This document shows positions 56,931 through 64,000 of a stretch of 64,000 nucleotides of DNA, in pieces. The notes under the pieces are model-generated. The model did no database searches and was not told the origin of the DNA. It was given only the letters and a program-made list of their open reading frames with translations. The position numbers and the translations under genes were made by a program. Position 1 is the stretch's first letter. Each line of letters starts with the position of its first letter. The DNA is from an uncultured Oscillospiraceae bacterium (GTDB lineage: Bacteria; Bacillota; Clostridia; Oscillospirales; Oscillospiraceae), in the NCBI GenBank assembly GCA_947627285.1, contig CANQVL010000008.1, positions 1 to 64,000 on the forward strand. The letters run 5' to 3'.

Positions 56931-57698
56931 ATGGGTTTATTTCTGACGCTGGCGTTTTTGTTTTTCATAGGCTCGGTGTTCGGGTGGGTGCTGGAGCTGT
57001 TTTTCAGGCGGTTCTTTTCAAAGGCGAATCCTGAGAGGAAGTGGATAAATCCGGGCTTTTGCACGGGGCCGTATGTGCCGCTTTACGGCATGGGGCTGTG
57101 TCTGCTGTTCCTCATAGCGTCGCTGGAGAACACAACGTGGATCGAGAACCCGTTCTGGGAGAAGGCGGCGCTGTTCGCCTTTATGGCGGTGTGCATGACA
57201 GCCATCGAGTACATAGCGGGGATCATGAGCATTAAGATCGCCAAGGTGAGGCTGTGGGACTACTCCAACCAGTGGGGGAACATTCAGGGCATCATCTGCC
57301 CGGTGTTTTCACTGGCGTGGGCGGTGCTGGGGGCGGTTTACTACTTCCTCATACACCCGTACATACTGGACGCGCTTCGCTGGCTCTCCAACAACCTGGC
57401 GTTTTCCTTTGTGATAGGGATGTTTTACGGCGTTTTTATCATCGACCTTGCCCACTCCGTGCAGCTGGTGGCGAGACTCAGGAAATTCGCGCGGGACAAC
57501 GACGTTATCATCAGGTACGAGAACCTCAAGGCGCACATCCGCGCCTTCCAGGACAAAACAGCCCAGAAGCACCGCTTTTTCAGCCCCTTCTCCTCCTCCA
57601 AGGCGCTGTCTGACCACCTGAAGGAGCGCCTGACAAAGGCCCGCGACGACATAAAAGCCAACAGGGACGCGGTGTTTGCGGCGAACAGGAGGAAATAG
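56931..57698 (+). CDS. Membrane protein, ABC_trans_CmpB-type (PF06541-like)
   Basis: A 255-residue protein with about five membrane helices and conserved FGWVLELFFRRFF near residue 17, INPGFCTGPYVPLYGMG (~45), IEYIAGI and LWDYSNQWGNIQGIICP (~105), the pattern of PF06541 putative permeases. The C-terminal ~70 residues are basic and cytosolic. No ATPase partner is next to it; function unknown. ATG 56931 follows GGGAGGGACAGAG. Confidence 0.8.
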   Translation: MGLFLTLAFLFFIGSVFGWVLELFFRRFFSKANPERKWINPGFCTGPYVPLYGMGLCLLFLIASLENTTWIENPFWEKAALFAFMAVCMTAIEYIAGIMSIKIAKVRLWDYSNQWGNIQGIICPVFSLAWAVLGAVYYFLIHPYILDALRWLSNNLAFSFVIGMFYGVFIIDLAHSVQLVARLRKFARDNDVIIRYENLKAHIRAFQDKTAQKHRFFSPFSSSKALSDHLKERLTKARDDIKANRDAVFAANRRK

Positions 57699-57820
57699 GG
57701 AGATAGACGGAGTGCGGTTCTTGAGGGGACCGGCATCTGATTTAATTTATACATTATCCCGCCTCCGGTCCGGAGGAACGGGGAAGAAAAATCACGCCCC
57801 GCGTGTGCGGGGCGTCAGCC

Positions 57821-57990
57821 TGTCGGCAAAGGTCTTTGACCTTTGCCGACAATGGGAACGTGCGGGAAAAAGCCGTGAATTTTGCGAAATTCACGGCTTT
57901 TTTCCTGCTGTTTTGCTGCGCGCGCCGCCGTAGGCGGCACACTTGCAAAACATAAGGTGATTTTTCCGACGTACATGCCGCCGGAAAAAT
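57821..57990 (+). repeat. Multi-hairpin intergenic repeat, copy G (covaried HP2)
   Basis: HP0 TGTCGGCAAAGGTC/GACCTTTGCCGACA with TTT loop (57821-57851); linker GGGAACGTGC; HP1 57864-57905 with TGCG loop. HP2's outer stem is TGTTTTGC (57909-57916)/GCAAAACA (57945-57952), where other copies have TGTCGCGC/GCGCGACA: three positions changed on both arms. HP3 57960-57990. The 120 bp before it (57699-57820) contain two further short hairpins (CCTCCGG/CCGGAGG and ACGCCCCGC/GCGGGGCGT) and no gene. The recombinase gene begins 40 bp after it. Confidence 0.92.
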
Positions 57991-58030
57991 ATTTGATAGG
58001 GGACCTTATTCTTTAAAGGAGCGAAGCGGT

Positions 58031-58846
58031 ATGGAAAAGGAGCTTGCGGGGTTTGACGCGATGCTGCGCGATAAGGAGCGCTCCCGGGGGACGCGGGAGC
58101 AGTATCTGCGCGCGGTCGCGAGGTTTTTGCAGGATTTAGGCGGCGGGGAGCCGAGCCGGGAGACCGTGGCGGCGTGGCGGGATTCGCTCACCGCCCAGGG
58201 GTACAGCGCCGTGACGGTGAATGCCATGCTCTCCGCCGTCAACGGCTACCTTGTGTTCGTCGGGAAGCCCGAGTGCCGGGTCAAATTTCTCCGCGTCCAG
58301 CGCCGGGTGTTCCGGGCGAAGGAGCGGGAGTTGACGCGGGAGGAGTACGAAAGGCTCCTCGCCGCCGCGCCGGAGAGGACGGGGCTCATCATGGAGACTG
58401 TCTGCGCCACGGGGATCCGCGTCTCGGAATTGCGCTACATCACCGTGGAGGCGGTGCAGAGCGGCTGCGCGGAGATACGTTTAAAGGGCAAGATCCGCAC
58501 GATCCTACTCCCCGGCAAGCTGTGCCGGAAGCTGCTCAAATACGCCAAAAAGAAAAAGACCGCCTCCGGCGAGATATTCCTCACCGGAAACGGCAAGCCC
58601 CTGACGCGGGGTCAAATATGGGCGGAGATGAAGGCGGTATGCAAAAAAGCGGGGGTGGACCCGCGAAAGGTCTTCCCCCACAATCTGAGACATCTGTTTG
58701 CCCGGACATTTTACCACGTCACACGGGATATAGCGAAGCTGGCGGACGTGCTGGGCCACAGCTCCATCGAAACGACGCGAATTTACCTCATATCCACCGG
58801 TGAGGAGCACGCGCGGGTGCTGGACCGATTGGGGCTGGTGAGTTAG
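58031..58846 (+). CDS. Tyrosine recombinase, probable promoter invertase
   Basis: A 271-residue XerC/D-like recombinase. An N-terminal SAM-like core-binding domain (~1-90) is followed by the catalytic domain with Arg in ATGIRVSELR (~139), Lys in LKGK (~160), HNLRHLFART (His and Arg, ~218-224), LGHSS (His, ~239) and the nucleophile Tyr in TTRIYL (~250). All are present, so it should be active. It lacks the Arm-binding domain of phage integrases. The first recombination site begins one base after its stop codon. AAAGGAG precedes ATG 58031. Like FimB/FimE and clostridial RecV, it most likely inverts the adjacent 248-bp segment. Confidence 0.88.
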   Translation: MEKELAGFDAMLRDKERSRGTREQYLRAVARFLQDLGGGEPSRETVAAWRDSLTAQGYSAVTVNAMLSAVNGYLVFVGKPECRVKFLRVQRRVFRAKERELTREEYERLLAAAPERTGLIMETVCATGIRVSELRYITVEAVQSGCAEIRLKGKIRTILLPGKLCRKLLKYAKKKKTASGEIFLTGNGKPLTRGQIWAEMKAVCKKAGVDPRKVFPHNLRHLFARTFYHVTRDIAKLADVLGHSSIETTRIYLISTGEEHARVLDRLGLVS

Positions 58847-58902
58847 GACAAAATTATTCTTTTGTGCTATTAGCAATCTAACGCACGAAAAGATACGAAA
58901 TA

Positions 58903-58931
58903 ATAATACACCGAAACGGACGTTTTGTAAA
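58903..58931 (-). promoter_or_regulatory. Leftward promoter inside the invertible segment
   Basis: On the minus strand TTTACA (58926-58931), 17 bp, TATTAT (58903-58908); five of six bases match in each box. In the orientation shown it fires away from the surface protein gene into the recombinase 3' end. After inversion the start site would fall near 59047, about 66 bp before the surface gene's ATG. Confidence 0.78.
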
Positions 58932-58965
58932 GTCTTTATCTCATTTTTTTAATAATTGGCAAAAC

Positions 58966-59032
58966 CGGCAGGCGTCATCAGACCGGGGTCCTTTTTTCTT
59001 CGGGCTCTGGTCCGGTCGTGATGCCGTTTTTT
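58966..59032 (+). terminator. Rightward terminator inside the invertible segment
   Basis: GGC-TCATCA-GACCGG (58971-58986) pairs imperfectly with CCGGTC-GTGAT-GCC (59012-59025), closing a long hairpin that ends in GTTTTTT (59026-59032). In this orientation it would stop transcripts from the recombinase side before the surface gene. Confidence 0.7.
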
Positions 59033-59112
59033 GGGGCAAATATGTACGTTCGGCGGCTCAAAATCCGGCTGCTCAATACAAAAGAATAATTTTGTAATGA
59101 GGAGTGAAGGCA

Positions 59113-62100
59113 ATGAGGAAGAAGATCGCGATGTGTCTGGCTGTTGTCACTGCCCTCGTGCTGCTGGCGACCGCTGTCTTTGCCGCCGGAAACGACGCGG
59201 CGGCTGACAAGTGGGACGGCAGCAGTAAGGACACCAGCTGGTATACCGGACACGAAGAACAGAGTGAATTTACCATTACTACCGCCAAGGAGCTTGCGGG
59301 TTTGGCGGAATTGGTCAACGGAGGCAACGGTTTCCACGGCAAGACAATAAACCTGGGCGCTGACATTGACCTTGATAACCAGCAATGGACGCCGATTGGG
59401 AAGGTTAACGGTTCCTTCCGAGGCACCTTTGACGGTAAAGAACATACCATCAGTAACCTTACTATCACAGGCGACCTTGGTCTGGGTCTTTTCGGAGACT
59501 TAGGCGCAAATTCTAGTGATCACGAGCCCACTGTGGGAACCCTTCAGAACCTGACTATCAACAATGCAAAAATTACTGGTCGTGGATATATCGGCGCTTT
59601 TGTCGGCGGCGGTATCCCAACATACCGTCAAAATGGTTGCATCATAAAGAACTGCAAGTTGACAGGTAATGTCCACATCTCCGCCAGTATGGGTCAAGTC
59701 GGTGGAATTGCCGGATACATATCGGGCATGAATAATGAAGATGGCGCTAACATTGAGAACTGCACAGTCAGCGCCAATCCGGGCAGCGTAATTGACGGAA
59801 ACGGCAACATACGTGTGGGAGGTATACTGGGGTATACTGGAATAAGCCCTTCCTCCATCATTAAGGGGTGCAAGGTTTCCGGCGTTACTATTTCCGGCAG
59901 TACAGGCGTGGGTGGTATTGTCGGTGTCATAAATCAAAAAAATATTATTCAAGACTGCTCTGTTGAAAACATCACTGTAAATTCCACGAAAGACGACAAC
60001 ACTGCCGGCTTGATCGTCGGTCAGATTAATACAGAGGGTTCTAGCGCCGCAACTCTCCCGAAGATGTACGACTGCACAGCGGATGAGACTTCCAAAGTTA
60101 CCGCCGCAGACGCTGAGCTTGAGGATCCGCCCCTGATAGGTCAGAACGGTAGACCTGTTCTCGTTGGCACGGGTATCGAGCTTGATGATGAAGGCAAGAT
60201 CAAAAAGGGTGAGATCGAGCTCCAGGGCAACTTCTCCGGCACAGTAGATGAAAGCGAATTGGTTGCCACCGGCTCGGAAAACGACGTGAAAGTCAAGAAC
60301 GGCGGATTTGAAGAAGGCAAGCTCGTCTCCTACGCTGTCATGGTCGACGACAAGGGCTATGAGACGCTTGAAGCAGCTTTGGCGGCGGAGGAAACTGCGG
60401 AGAACGCCACCGTCACCCTCCTCAAGAGCATTTCGCTGAGCGAGGCTGTCAACATCACCAAATCCGTGACCATCAAGGGCGCGGAGGGTATCACCGTCAC
60501 TCGCGCCGCGAACTACACCGGTACGTTCTTCACCGTCTCCGACGGCAAGACCCTGACACTCTCCGGCGTAACCATCGACGCGGGCGGCAAGTGGAGCATT
60601 GATAAGGAGAAGTGGGAAGCGGATAAGAAGATCTCCCTGGAGCAGAACCTGTCCGTTTACAACGGCTCCTGGATAAATAACGCGGTAGACCCGGTCGTGC
60701 TGGGAGACGGAAACGTTGTCACCACCGCCAACTTGATCGTGCTGGACGGCACAGCCGGACTGGTGCTGGAGGGCGGCACGGTGATCCAGAATATGTACGC
60801 CGATTCGGAGCTTCACATCATCGGCTGGGGCAACACGCCGAATAACGGCACCCCGAATAAGATCACCGTCAATGACGCGGCTATAAAGCAAAATCTCGGC
60901 AAGGGTTCCCTGGTCGCGGCGCTCGGAAGAAAAGCTGATATTGCCCTGAACAGCGGAGCTGAGCTTACCGATAACTTCAACCTCTCCGGCGCCAACGGCG
61001 GCTTGTTCTATCTGAGCAGCGGCGCTTCGCTGACCATGGAGAGCGGAGCTTCAGTCATCGGAAACCGGGGCGTCAACTGCAACGGCACGTTCTTCATGTC
61101 CTACGGTGAGGGCACCGTCGCCACTATGAACGGCGGCACCGTCAGCAAAAACGAGGGACTGAAGGGCGGCAATACCTATTGCCAGCCGATTTACACCCAT
61201 TCGGGCGGCAAATTCGTCATGAACGACGGCTCTATTACGTACAACACTGGGTGCAACGCCGGAGCAATTGCGCAGAACCCCAAAGGGAACACCACCGTTG
61301 AGCTCAACGGCGGCGTAATAGCGAATAACCATTACCATGGTGAAGGAGAGCTGCTCGGTTACGGAGAGGTTTTCCTTTCCGGTACGGCAACCGTTGGCAA
61401 GGATGTTCAAATCACCGGCGAGGTTGGTATTTACGGTCAGGCCAGCGTGACTGTTGCGGAAGGCAACGTAATAGACGGCAGCGTGTTTGTCTGGTCTGAG
61501 CGTTATAATGACAGTATTAAGGACTACAAAGCGGATCTCAACGGCACAATAACCGGCGACCTCTATTTCCAAGACACCGCAAACGTCACCGTCACCGACA
61601 CAGGCACCGTCAAGGGTAACGTCACCGTTGCCGAGTATGACCCGGGTAATGACAAGCACTGCGAGGGTCCCTCTGTCAACAAAGGCACCATTGAGGGCAC
61701 CGTCACCCTTGAGCCCGGCACCTCGATTCAGCTCGGTGAGGAGGAGGTCACCGCCGGTGAAAACGGTGCTGAGTTCACCGTGGACGGAAATAACGTCACC
61801 CTGCTCGAGGGCACGTTGAAAGCAGCGAATGAGGAAAGGACGCTCACCGTCAAGGACAGCGAGGGCAACGAGTTGAAGCCCGGCGAAGGAGACGTCTACA
61901 TGATAGTCGTCGCCGAAGTCACCTGCGACGGTAAGTCCACGAAATTCGACAACCTGGTCGCCGCTGTAGCAGAGGCGAAGAACATAGCCGACCATCAGGA
62001 GGCCGGCAAGACCGAGCCTGTCACCGTCACCCTTCTCAAGGATGCTGAGGGCGGCGGGATCCAACTGACTACGGCTACGGATCAACAGACCAACAAGTCC

Positions 62101-64000
62101 CCCGAGATTGTTATCGACTTTGATCATCACACCTACACCCTGACCAATCCTCCGGTTGGCTCTACCGGAACGGCGACGCAAGGGATGCAGCTTAAGAAAG
62201 GCAACACCGTCACGCTGAAAAACGGCACACTTGCGGTTAGCGAGAAAAACGGAACCTTTGAGAAAAACTTCCTGTGGCTCATTAACAACTACGCGAACCT
62301 GACCATTGAGAACATGACGCTGGACGGCACAAATCTTGTGATGCCCGGTAGCCCCAAGATGATTTTTACGCTGAGCAACACCGGTACTGCCGACATAAAG
62401 AATACCAGGTTTATCGACAGCAACAGTCAGGCAGATGGAGAGATTTTCTCTATCGCCGCAGGATATGGGACGCAGCATGCAGGCTACGGTACTCCTGCTA
62501 AAGTCACTATTGACGACGAAACCACATTTAATAATGTTTATGTCGAACGCACTGTAGAGAACGAGAAACAGAGCTTTGATGAATTTACCGATGGAATGAT
62601 GGCCTACGTTGTATTTGGCGGCGTAAAGTACGGAATTGACACAACAGAACCGACTGCGAAATCTTACATCGAATTCACCAAGACCGGCGACACCCTCTCA
62701 CCCGTGCTGCCGGACGCGAACCTCAACTACAGCGCCATAGTGGATATCTCCATCGTGGACGACTGCGCCGCGCAGACCATGTGGGTGCGGTTTGACGAGC
62801 CCCTGCCGGCTAACACCTGGCTGTGGTTCGAGATCACTGCCTCCGATGGCACCGTCTACGGTATTGCCGCCCAAGGCAACGGCACCGCCACGAAGTTTGC
62901 CTGGAGCTTCCTGAACCAGAAACAGTTTGAGAACTGGCCCAAGGGCAAGGAGAGCATCGCCAACGGCGAAGCCACCGTAAAATGCTACGTTCTGCCCGGA
63001 AAGGTAGAAGGAGGGACAGCTCCCTCGGCTGATTCCATGTATTTTGCCTGGGAGAAGACCGTCAACGTCAGCAACGTCACCGCCTATGTCCCCGATCCTG
63101 TGGTGAGTGTTGACCCAAGCTTAGAGGATAATAAAGAAACCCTTACCCCAGCAGCTAATAACACAAAACTCGACCCAGCCGATATGAACGACCTCGCTGC
63201 CGAGGCCCTGACCGACCCCGACCATGCGATCCCCACGACGGAGGAAGCCAAGGAAGATCTCAAAAATGGAGGCGTGGAAGTCGGGGAAGACGCGGTTCAA
63301 ATCGTCGTCCAGACCTACATGGATGTCAAGGTCACAGATTATGAGAACGACGAGAACGGCAAAAAGCTGACCTTTGAGATCAAGCCCATGTACCAGGTCG
63401 TCGCCACCACTGCGGAAGACGTGAAGGAAATCAAGCTTGATGGCGATGAACCCAACGCCGTCACAATCGGCGAAGCCCATGAGCTCACCGTGACCGAACC
63501 CGTCACCATGACACTGGGCGTGCCGGACAACTTCCTGGGCGAGGGCGCGGTCTATGTCAAGCACGTCAAGGACAACGGCAGGACCTATTACTACAGAGCC
63601 TCCTCTAATAAGGACAGCAATACCATCACCTTCACCAACCCCCACGGCTTCTCCGAATTCACCGTCATCGTAACGGCTCCGGAGTTTAAGGCTGAGATCG
63701 GCGATACCCTTTATGAAACCCTCAAGGATGCCGTGGATCACGTTCAGAACGGCGAGACCATCGTTGTGACCGGAGACTGCTCCGAAGAGAACGTGACAGT
63801 TGGTCGCAGCGTGAGCTTCAGCGTCAAGGTTAATGACGGCGCTCAGGCTGGCACCATCACCGCCGGCGGCGGATACAACATGAGCACCAGCGTAAGCGGA
63901 ACCACTACGACCTACACCGTATCCTACTCCGCGCCGCCTGCTTCCGGCTCCTCCGGCTACACCGTGAAGACTGAGGAGGTCGAGAACGCAACTGTCGAAA
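59113..64000 (+). CDS. Giant secreted surface protein, phase-variable (3' end outside window)
   Basis: Open from ATG 59113 to the window end (more than 1,629 codons, no stop). A signal peptide (MRKKIAMCLAVVTALVLLAT) is followed by TAKELAGLAELVNGGNGFHG, GADIDLDNQQWTPIG and GTFDGKEHTISNLTITG, the GLUG-type module of surface adhesins, with GGIAGY/GGIVGV turns to ~residue 300. From ~420 come parallel beta-helix repeats (LEGGTV, NGGTVSKN, GTVKGNVTV) and later beta-sandwich-like regions with clustered Asn/Thr. SLH or other anchor domains would be expected beyond 64000. GAGGAG sits 8 nt upstream. No promoter is visible downstream of the switch terminator in this orientation. Confidence 0.88.
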   Translation, partial: MRKKIAMCLAVVTALVLLATAVFAAGNDAAADKWDGSSKDTSWYTGHEEQSEFTITTAKELAGLAELVNGGNGFHGKTINLGADIDLDNQQWTPIGKVNGSFRGTFDGKEHTISNLTITGDLGLGLFGDLGANSSDHEPTVGTLQNLTINNAKITGRGYIGAFVGGGIPTYRQNGCIIKNCKLTGNVHISASMGQVGGIAGYISGMNNEDGANIENCTVSANPGSVIDGNGNIRVGGILGYTGISPSSIIKGCKVSGVTISGSTGVGGIVGVINQKNIIQDCSVENITVNSTKDDNTAGLIVGQINTEGSSAATLPKMYDCTADETSKVTAADAELEDPPLIGQNGRPVLVGTGIELDDEGKIKKGEIELQGNFSGTVDESELVATGSENDVKVKNGGFEEGKLVSYAVMVDDKGYETLEAALAAEETAENATVTLLKSISLSEAVNITKSVTIKGAEGITVTRAANYTGTFFTVSDGKTLTLSGVTIDAGGKWSIDKEKWEADKKISLEQNLSVYNGSWINNAVDPVVLGDGNVVTTANLIVLDGTAGLVLEGGTVIQNMYADSELHIIGWGNTPNNGTPNKITVNDAAIKQNLGKGSLVAALGRKADIALNSGAELTDNFNLSGANGGLFYLSSGASLTMESGASVIGNRGVNCNGTFFMSYGEGTVATMNGGTVSKNEGLKGGNTYCQPIYTHSGGKFVMNDGSITYNTGCNAGAIAQNPKGNTTVELNGGVIANNHYHGEGELLGYGEVFLSGTATVGKDVQITGEVGIYGQASVTVAEGNVIDGSVFVWSERYNDSIKDYKADLNGTITGDLYFQDTANVTVTDTGTVKGNVTVAEYDPGNDKHCEGPSVNKGTIEGTVTLEPGTSIQLGEEEVTAGENGAEFTVDGNNVTLLEGTLKAANEERTLTVKDSEGNELKPGEGDVYMIVVAEVTCDGKSTKFDNLVAAVAEAKNIADHQEAGKTEPVTVTLLKDAEGGGIQLTTATDQQTNKSPEIVIDFDHHTYTLTNPPVGSTGTATQGMQLKKGNTVTLKNGTLAVSEKNGTFEKNFLWLINNYANLTIENMTLDGTNLVMPGSPKMIFTLSNTGTADIKNTRFIDSNSQADGEIFSIAAGYGTQHAGYGTPAKVTIDDETTFNNVYVERTVENEKQSFDEFTDGMMAYVVFGGVKYGIDTTEPTAKSYIEFTKTGDTLSPVLPDANLNYSAIVDISIVDDCAAQTMWVRFDEPLPANTWLWFEITASDGTVYGIAAQGNGTATKFAWSFLNQKQFENWPKGKESIANGEATVKCYVLPGKVEGGTAPSADSMYFAWEKTVNVSNVTAYVPDPVVSVDPSLEDNKETLTPAANNTKLDPADMNDLAAEALTDPDHAIPTTEEAKEDLKNGGVEVGEDAVQIVVQTYMDVKVTDYENDENGKKLTFEIKPMYQVVATTAEDVKEIKLDGDEPNAVTIGEAHELTVTEPVTMTLGVPDNFLGEGAVYVKHVKDNGRTYYYRASSNKDSNTITFTNPHGFSEFTVIVTAPEFKAEIGDTLYETLKDAVDHVQNGETIVVTGDCSEENVTVGRSVSFSVKVNDGAQAGTITAGGGYNMSTSVSGTTTTYTVSYSAPPASGSSGYTVKTEEVENATVE

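What the first reader, a model, noticed from the sequence alone, without database searches (positions are those of the whole stretch)
58031..64000. Recombinase-inverton-giant adhesin: a probable ON/OFF phase switch for a surface protein
Seen: a complete tyrosine recombinase gene; one base after its stop an 18-bp repeat (ACAAAATTATTCTTTTGT) whose exact reverse complement lies 18 bp before the ATG of a >1,629-residue secreted repeat protein; and a promoter in the 212-bp interior. Known: this is the anatomy of FimB/FimE-fimS and of RecV-controlled switches such as cwpV in Clostridioides difficile. Inferred: inversion decides whether cells display the protein. I know of no description of this particular locus.
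Basis: partly seen in the sequence, partly recalled or inferred. Interest (0 to 1): 0.95.

Follow-up and report, generated by a model that had tools for sequence, protein, structure and literature searches.

The report
Invertible surface-protein switch with antisense brake
This bacterium carries sixteen copies of a compact module in which a recombinase gene sits beside a short, promoter-like DNA segment framed by inverted repeats; the recombinase is predicted to flip the segment and so turn a neighbouring gene, here one for a surface protein, on or off, and in the off position the promoter would likely also make an antisense RNA against the recombinase itself.

Summary
In detail: a Xer-type tyrosine recombinase (58031-58846), an exact 18-bp inverted repeat (58848-58865 / 59078-59095) and a 1,876-aa secreted protein ending in three SLH domains. 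The promoter-like sequence inside points away from that gene, so this assembly shows the OFF orientation. The locus is one of 16 recombinase + inverted-repeat modules in this genome, and such repeats accompany this recombinase family in the genus (61 of 62 testable units) and order (89 of 96). Near-identical interiors occur in both orientations in paralogues and relatives, so such segments do invert; flipping of this copy is inferred. The layout is fimS-like, not cwpV-like. New here: recombinases of the window's class carry, inside their coding sequence, an intrinsic terminator on the antisense strand, kept by synonymous codon choice (z about -3.2), with compensatory changes, G-U pairs and a T-run that favour the antisense strand. 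It lies where transcription from the OFF-oriented promoter would end, predicting an RNA of about 350 nt. I read this as state-dependent feedback of the switch on its own recombinase; whether it acts as brake or shield is untested. New variant of a known kind.

The parts
58031..58846 (+). Tyrosine recombinase (271 aa), SAM-like N-terminal domain and catalytic domain; R130, K154, H217, R220, H243, Y252
   Evidence: PF00589 E 2.3e-25, PF02899 E 3.9e-7; aligns to XerA/XerD structures 4a8e, 1a0p; six residues invariant in 73 of 73
58559..58594 (-). Hairpin (16-pair stem, loop 4) of an intrinsic terminator on the antisense strand, inside the recombinase ORF (codons 177-188)
   Evidence: terminator scan; synonymous-codon tests; covariation; strand asymmetry
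58547..58558 (-). T-run (CTTTTTCTTTTT) after that hairpin, encoded by the Lys run
   Evidence: sequence; AAA preferred over AAG here in classes A and C, not B
58848..58865 (+). Left inverted repeat; itself a dyad ACAAAA-TTATTC-TTTTGT
58866..59077 (.). Predicted invertible segment, 212 bp
   Evidence: homologous segments occur inverted in relatives
58926..58931 (-). -35-like TTTACA, pointing at the recombinase (OFF orientation)
   Evidence: best-promoter score reached by 0 of 60 dinucleotide shuffles
58903..58908 (-). -10-like TATTAT
58970..59032 (+). Imperfect hairpin followed by TTTTTT (59027-59032), possible terminator inside the segment
   Evidence: RNA fold (whole segment z -1.24, not remarkable); not found by my ungapped terminator scan
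59078..59095 (-). Right inverted repeat, exact reverse complement of the left
59100..59104 (+). Ribosome-binding-site-like AGGAG, outside the segment
   Evidence: sequence
59113..64000 (+). Secreted SLH-domain surface protein gene (1,876 aa; ends at contig position 64743, beyond the window)
   Evidence: signal peptide by eye; SLH x3 PF00395 E 1.2e-34, GLUG PF07581 E 1.4e-5, PF18998 E 5.3e-5

Best explanation
A tyrosine recombinase gene and a pair of exact 18-bp inverted repeats next to it frame a 212-bp segment whose promoter-like sequence points away from an SLH-domain surface-protein gene, so the recombinase is predicted to flip the segment and thereby switch that gene on or off, while in the present orientation the same promoter would likely make an antisense RNA that is predicted to end at a terminator built into the recombinase's own coding sequence. 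Steps shown: the anatomy; the recurrence of recombinase + repeat pair; inversion of homologous segments among relatives; selection for an antisense hairpin plus T-run inside class-A recombinase genes. Steps inferred: that this copy flips; that flipping puts the promoter (start near 59047) in front of the surface gene; that the OFF state makes an RNA from about 58896 to about 58549; that this RNA dampens recombinase expression, or that its terminator shields the rest of the gene from convergent transcription, so that switch state feeds back on switching rate. I hold the switch at about 0.9, the antisense RNA at about 0.65, and its being a brake rather than only a shield at about 0.5.
For: Anatomy and chance. 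Repeat pair at or near the recombinase stop: 16 of 16 analysed in the own genome, 61 of 62 testable in the genus, 1 of 128 control gene ends, 89 of 96 testable in the wider set (rechecked). Catalytic residues 73 of 73. Interiors hold a promoter better than shuffles (p at most 0.05) in 134 of 152, and it ends 25-60 bp from the arm it faces in 138 of 152 against 17% of shuffles. Opposite orientations of near-identical interiors: G000_C33 (ON) against G018_C61 (OFF) 97.9% over 288 bp; G015_C37 (ON) against G015_C1 (OFF) 96.7% over 150 bp; G000_C33 against G000_C37 93% within the own genome; and, in the window recombinase's own 20-row subclade, G013_C58 inverted against G025_C2 and G019_C93 at 81-84%. 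Contig breaks on the repeat side 27, upstream side 8, of 182 units, p 0.0019. Antisense terminator: one peak in the whole gene over 181 genes; class A z -3.2; score 12 or more in 110 of 181 genes against 22% of synonymous shuffles; double-sided changes 34 against at most 19 in 300 shuffles; score 16 or more in class A 55 of 65, class C 23 of 42, class B 5 of 42, ordinary ORF windows 11 of 277; G-U pairs fit antisense 164 to 50, Lys run AAA 109 of 140 in class A against 407 of 1083 elsewhere, no such bias in class B.
Against: No reads or expression data were available. The interior of this very copy has no DNA match in the 39 relatives searched, so its own inversion is not seen. Of the 20 recombinases in its subclade 18 are called OFF, 2 undecided, none ON by score (one of the two is ON by homology). 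The promoter's lead over the best rightward candidate in this interior is small (10.1 against 9.3 on an ad hoc scale), and 18 of 152 interiors show no significant promoter. 1 of 62 and 7 of 96 testable units lack the repeat pair. Class B recombinases lack the antisense terminator although most of their promoters also face the recombinase in OFF, and about half of class C lack it, so it is not a universal need; a weaker signal exists on the sense strand too (mean z -1.01). Contig breaks can also come from near-identical paralogues. The arm classes A, B, C are my own pattern-based split.
Confidence: 0.8

Rival explanations
1. An ordinary invertible-promoter switch, with nothing special on the recombinase: the in-ORF hairpin is a sense-strand mRNA structure or a consequence of protein sequence, not an antisense terminator.
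For: The anatomy alone explains the switch; the hairpin also gives a weaker sense signal (mean z -1.01); class B modules do without it.
Against: Synonymous shuffles keep the protein and still lose most of the hairpin. G-U pairs that exist only on the antisense strand outnumber sense-only ones 164 to 50, and AAA is chosen in the Lys run that makes the antisense T-run.
Confidence: 0.25
2. A dead or frozen switch: the segment inverted in the past in relatives but this copy is fixed in the present orientation, and the surface gene is silent or uses another promoter.
For: All score-called members of the subclade are OFF; no orientation variant of this copy was found.
Against: The two arms are still identical over 18 bp although arm spacers differ between modules; the catalytic residues are intact; one homologous interior in the same subclade is inverted.
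Confidence: 0.07
3. The recombinase is a mobile-element or Xer-type integrase and the repeats are its terminal or attachment sites, with the surface gene a bystander.
For: It belongs to the Xer/phage-integrase superfamily and the modules are multi-copy in unlike surroundings.
Against: The repeat pairs found lie downstream of the recombinase and frame 149-383 bp, mostly with a promoter near one arm; repeats that would enclose the recombinase were not searched for. 52 of 63 genus units have a secreted- or prepilin-like ORF next to the right arm by my heuristic, though order-level neighbours are more varied. No relative was found in viral contigs.
Confidence: 0.03

Closest known systems
fim switch (fimS with FimB/FimE) of Escherichia coli
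   Same: Tyrosine recombinase beside a short segment with a promoter inside, framed by inverted repeats, upstream of a surface-structure gene; recombinase expression coupled to orientation (fimE by a Rho-dependent terminator inside fimS; PMC9993118, passages; layout PMC8777976, passages).
   Different: One recombinase, not two; its ORF lies directly against the left arm; the coupling predicted here runs through an antisense transcript stopped by an intrinsic terminator inside the recombinase ORF; target is an SLH protein; 16 modules in one genome. NCBIfam 'tyrosine-type DNA invertase' models match far below cut-off (29.6 against 221 bits).
cwpV switch with RecV, Clostridioides difficile
   Same: Inversion of about 200 bp controlling a large cell-wall protein in a clostridial bacterium.
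   Different: cwpV's promoter lies outside the inverted segment, OFF is proposed to be by a terminator in the transcript, recV is elsewhere (PMC2784873, passages).
Inverton group 139 with invertase group 35 in the hCom2 gut community
   Same: 33 invertons, 32 from Clostridia, linked to nearby tyrosine recombinases; one in Intestinimonas butyriciproducens DSM 26588 has 14-nt repeats and 227 bp between (from its coordinates) and changes orientation in culture (PMC11892184, section 8 and passages).
   Different: No antisense terminator is mentioned in the parts I read.
Invertible promoters of Bacteroides (capsule and S-layer switches)
   Same: Many promoter invertons in one genome controlling surface layers.
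   Different: From memory: there one global invertase (Mpi) serves many sites, while here each site lies next to its own recombinase.

Membership tests
Recombinase-driven promoter inverton (general kind) | Inverted repeats framing a short segment with a promoter next to a target gene | tested here: met
   (promoter by sequence only)
Recombinase-driven promoter inverton (general kind) | Both orientations exist | tested here: inconclusive
   Met for homologous modules (G013_C58 in the same subclade); not seen for this copy
Recombinase-driven promoter inverton (general kind) | Inversion is catalysed by the recombinase | not testable with these tools
   Association 61 of 62 and intact active site only
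fimS / FimB-FimE type | Promoter inside the segment, recombinase adjacent | tested here: met
fimS / FimB-FimE type | Recombinase belongs to the FimB/FimE subfamily | tested here: not met
   NCBIfam NF007370/NF007371 29.6 and 23.1 bits, cut-offs 221 and 222; that these two models stand for FimB/FimE is recalled
cwpV / RecV type | Promoter outside the segment, OFF by leader terminator, recombinase unlinked | tested here: not met
   promoter inside and recombinase adjacent; cwpV facts from PMC2784873 (passages)
hCom2 inverton group 139 / invertase group 35 | Repeat sequence and recombinase sequence of those groups | not tested
   its sequences were not in the text I could read; only size and taxon agree

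The most novel reading that the evidence does not exclude
Throughout an order of gut bacteria, self-contained recombinase-inverton modules carry a dual-coded recombinase gene: its codons also spell an antisense terminator, so that the OFF position of the switch emits a defined RNA of about 350 nt against its own recombinase. Switch position thereby sets switching rate, giving each of a dozen or more surface proteins an independent, self-braked memory element.
Probability: 0.5. Interest if true: 0.87.

Novelty: new variant of a known kind. Interest (0 to 1): 0.72.

Why it matters
If true, a single genome holds 16 independent switches, most beside surface-protein or pilin-like genes and each with its own recombinase, in clostridial gut bacteria. 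The antisense terminator overlapping the recombinase code would be a compact design in which the state of a DNA switch is read back onto the enzyme that sets it; that makes the question of what biases such switches towards OFF (111 of 152 modules here, 35 ON, 6 undecided) directly testable by RNA 3'-end mapping and synonymous recoding.

Tried and rejected
Rfam: 5 hits, all far below gathering scores (including a fluoride-riboswitch-like hit at 58962-59034, 17.6 against 34 bits): rejected. Folding of the window's segment: z -1.24 and +0.90 on the two strands, no special structure. Viral contigs: 11 stretches matched a peptide pattern, none encodes a relative; the predicted ON junction of this copy, 0 matches. 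DNA match of this copy's interior in 39 other genomes: only the recombinase end plus left arm. Segment terminators as an insulator: OFF-frame + strand 38 of 62 class A, 16 of 42 class B, 23 of 41 class C; other strand 34, 12 and 25; no hit for the window's copy, so not made part of the model. First regex search for the antisense hairpin found its place in only 93 of 185 genes; replaced by the alignment-based scan. Other integrases as a control for the antisense terminator (11 loci): stretches were not oriented and included flanks; several gave high scores on one strand or the other, so uninformative. The 2019 survey of invertible promoters (PMC6543533) is not held.

Rows dropped before counts: 2 distant own-genome homologues (31% and 28% identity); 7 fragments among 80 rows; 3 of 112 rows outside G000 and G003 (one truncated, one with an internal stop, one, G096, left out by oversight). 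One search scored at most 6 candidates per genome, so its counts are lower bounds. The set is 109 loci plus 5; of these 5, L155 and L157 repeat L203 and L181 (same isolate) and are not among the testable 96, while L156, L159 and L160 are, L160 being titled Lachnoclostridium and without a repeat pair. One of the 89 pairs (L266) does not look like the others. In one search, 4 of 185 genes were dropped as identical or short; 30 of the 181 have no repeat pair in reach and 2 fit none of the three arm patterns.
Full report
What is there. The window holds a 271-aa tyrosine recombinase (58031-58846), one base, an 18-bp repeat (58848-58865), 212 bp, its exact reverse complement (59078-59095), AGGAG, and at 59113 the start of a long secreted protein. 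The repeat occurs only twice in 64 kb with up to 3 mismatches; 0 of 100 shuffles did the same. Each arm is itself a dyad, ACAAAA-N6-TTTTGT, as expected of a tyrosine-recombinase core site with two binding arms around a crossover region (recalled general knowledge). The protein is complete on the contig: 1,876 aa with a signal peptide (by eye), a GLUG motif, an InlB-type repeat and three C-terminal SLH domains. 'Adhesin' remains a guess; surface attachment by SLH domains is a standard inference.

Orientation. The only sigma-70-like site found by the tool in 57690-59200 lies inside the segment on the minus strand; shuffles give 0.6 such sites on average, so alone it is weak. It faces the recombinase: OFF for the surface gene. 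By my own score it was reached by 0 of 60 shuffles, and it ends 37 bp from the arm it faces, within the 25-60 bp of 138 of 152 modules, though a slightly weaker rightward candidate exists.

A genome full of modules. The genome (2.81 Mb, 95 contigs) has 18 homologues of the recombinase; the 16 closest (42-100% identity) were analysed, 2 distant ones left out. All 16 have an inverted repeat pair that begins between 16 bp before and 42 bp after the end of the stop codon, one of them short (13 of 14 bases) and one compound. Arms fall into class A, (A)CAAAAT-N4-ATTTTG(T), in 11 modules and class B, (G)ACATTAT-N4-ATAATGT(C), in 5; the central spacer varies, with 11 distinct spacers at 16 sites, which would limit crossing between modules (inference). 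Eight class-A modules precede secreted proteins of 531 to 1,876 aa (the contig ends too soon to tell in the other three); the five scanned all have three SLH domains. The five class-B modules precede prepilin-like proteins; the two scanned match PF07963. Contig C56 begins a few bases from another such arm followed by a 2,376-aa subtilase-SLH protein, a probable seventeenth module.

Relatives. In the genus 19 of 34 genomes, the own one included, carry the family at E 1e-40 or better. Of 73 units kept from 80 rows, 62 have at least 375 bp after the stop, and 61 of these have the repeat pair; other gene ends, 1 of 128. In a sample of the order, 88 of 394 genomes (66 of 168 genera) have a match at 1e-75 or better, a lower bound since at most 6 candidates per genome were scored; in that set plus five loci, 89 of 96 testable units have the pair. 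In the protein database 7,959 of the 8,000 candidates scored match at 1e-60. The recombinase tree (73 rows, bootstrap not settled) splits into two clades: all ACATTAT-type arms and all prepilin neighbours fall in one, the CAAAAT-type arms and SLH neighbours in the other.

Does it invert? Interiors that are 89-98% identical occur in opposite orientations relative to recombinase and neighbour gene: G000_C33 against G018_C61 and G017_C33, G000_C33 against G000_C37 in the same genome, G000_C56, G000_C27 and G015_C37 against G015_C1, G025_C12 against G030_C29. Within the window recombinase's own 20-row subclade, G013_C58 is inverted against G025_C2 and G019_C93 (81-84%). Over all 152 modules with a repeat pair the calls are 111 OFF, 35 ON, 6 undecided. 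Contigs end within 375 bp on the repeat side in 27 of 182 units and on the upstream side in 8, as mixed orientations would cause, though paralogous repeats could add to this. In print, an inverton of similar size in Intestinimonas butyriciproducens, from a group tied to clostridial tyrosine recombinases, changes orientation in culture (PMC11892184; section 8 and passages); whether it is the same family is untested. For the window's copy itself inversion is inferred.

The antisense terminator. In OFF, the promoter would transcribe through the left arm into the recombinase gene backwards. The minus strand there carries a 16-pair hairpin at 58594-58559 followed by CTTTTTCTTTTT. I tested whether this is chance. 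Scanning 181 recombinase genes in 14-codon windows against synonymous shuffles gave one peak only, at codons 175-188 (antisense mean z -1.81, sense -1.01; the other 33 windows between -0.61 and +0.22 on the antisense strand). In class A the peak is -3.2, in B -0.73, in C -0.93. A stem plus T-run scores 12 or more in 110 of 181 genes against 22% of synonymous shuffles, and 16 or more in 55 of 65 class-A genes, 23 of 42 class-C and 5 of 42 class-B, and in 11 of 277 windows of ordinary ORFs. Across 59 distinct class-A hairpins, double-sided pair changes number 34 (300 shuffles: mean 10.6, maximum 19), further pair types 29 (mean 20.4, maximum 29); 82.5% of cells pair (shuffles 78%, slid 39-48%). 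Pairs that work only on the antisense strand (G-U) outnumber those that work only on the sense strand 164 to 50, and 149 to 18 without the two outermost pairs. Lys codons that make the T-run are AAA in 109 of 140 in class A against 407 of 1083 elsewhere in the same genes; class C 47 of 65 against 483 of 941; class B shows no bias (11 of 24 against 356 of 929). The predicted RNA has a median of 355 nt, middle half 348-361 (55 genes); for the window about 348 nt, from about 58896 to 58549.

Mechanism I commit to. The recombinase would flip the segment. ON: the promoter, now near 59012-59040, would transcribe the surface gene, start near 59047. OFF: it would make a short antisense RNA complementary to the last ~300 nt of the recombinase mRNA, stopped by the in-ORF terminator. 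I think it lowers recombinase output in OFF while the terminator spares the rest of the gene and upstream DNA; this would favour long OFF periods, in keeping with, but not proved by, the OFF excess. That class B lacks the terminator is unexplained.

Compared with what is known. It works like fim: promoter inside, recombinase beside it, and recombinase expression tied to orientation (there by a Rho-dependent terminator within fimS; PMC9993118, passages). It is not of the FimB/FimE subfamily by NCBIfam cut-offs, and it is not cwpV-like (PMC2784873, passages). I found no account of an antisense terminator inside an invertase gene in the listings, nor in passages of PMC10994844, PMC8777976 and PMC5903667; papers outside this open library, including the 2019 survey of invertible promoters, were not read, so absence from print is not established.

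Noticed in passing
L044 11863-12113 and L046 5275-5520 (own genome, contigs C56 and C27): Two modules have three recombination sites; the block between the outer sites in one is, by eye, the reverse complement in the other, as if two successive inversions separate them.
   Followed up: partly
L044 6-23 and 73-7203: Contig begins at an arm followed by a subtilase-SLH gene of 2,376 aa: probably a module whose recombinase side is not assembled here.
   Followed up: partly
L047, L048, L049, L050, L051: Five class-B modules precede prepilin-like genes; in one relative, G018, five modules with near-identical leaders do the same: possible phase-variable pilins.
   Followed up: partly
L126 1734-2507; L128: Class-B-like modules, one called ON and one OFF, upstream of a Wzz chain-length gene (L126, Pfam) and a look-alike (L128, by eye): envelope polysaccharide under the same kind of switch.
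   Followed up: partly
L185 79-1215, L225 620-1738, L277 1-1692: Order-level modules next to non-surface genes: DUF4379 zinc-finger protein, SPFH/band-7 protein, helicase with HA domains; possible phase-variable defence or stress genes.
   Followed up: partly
L273: A module with unusually long near-perfect arms (score 68).
   Followed up: no
window 57821-57905: Two strong hairpins between the upstream gene and the recombinase, one terminator-like.
   Followed up: no
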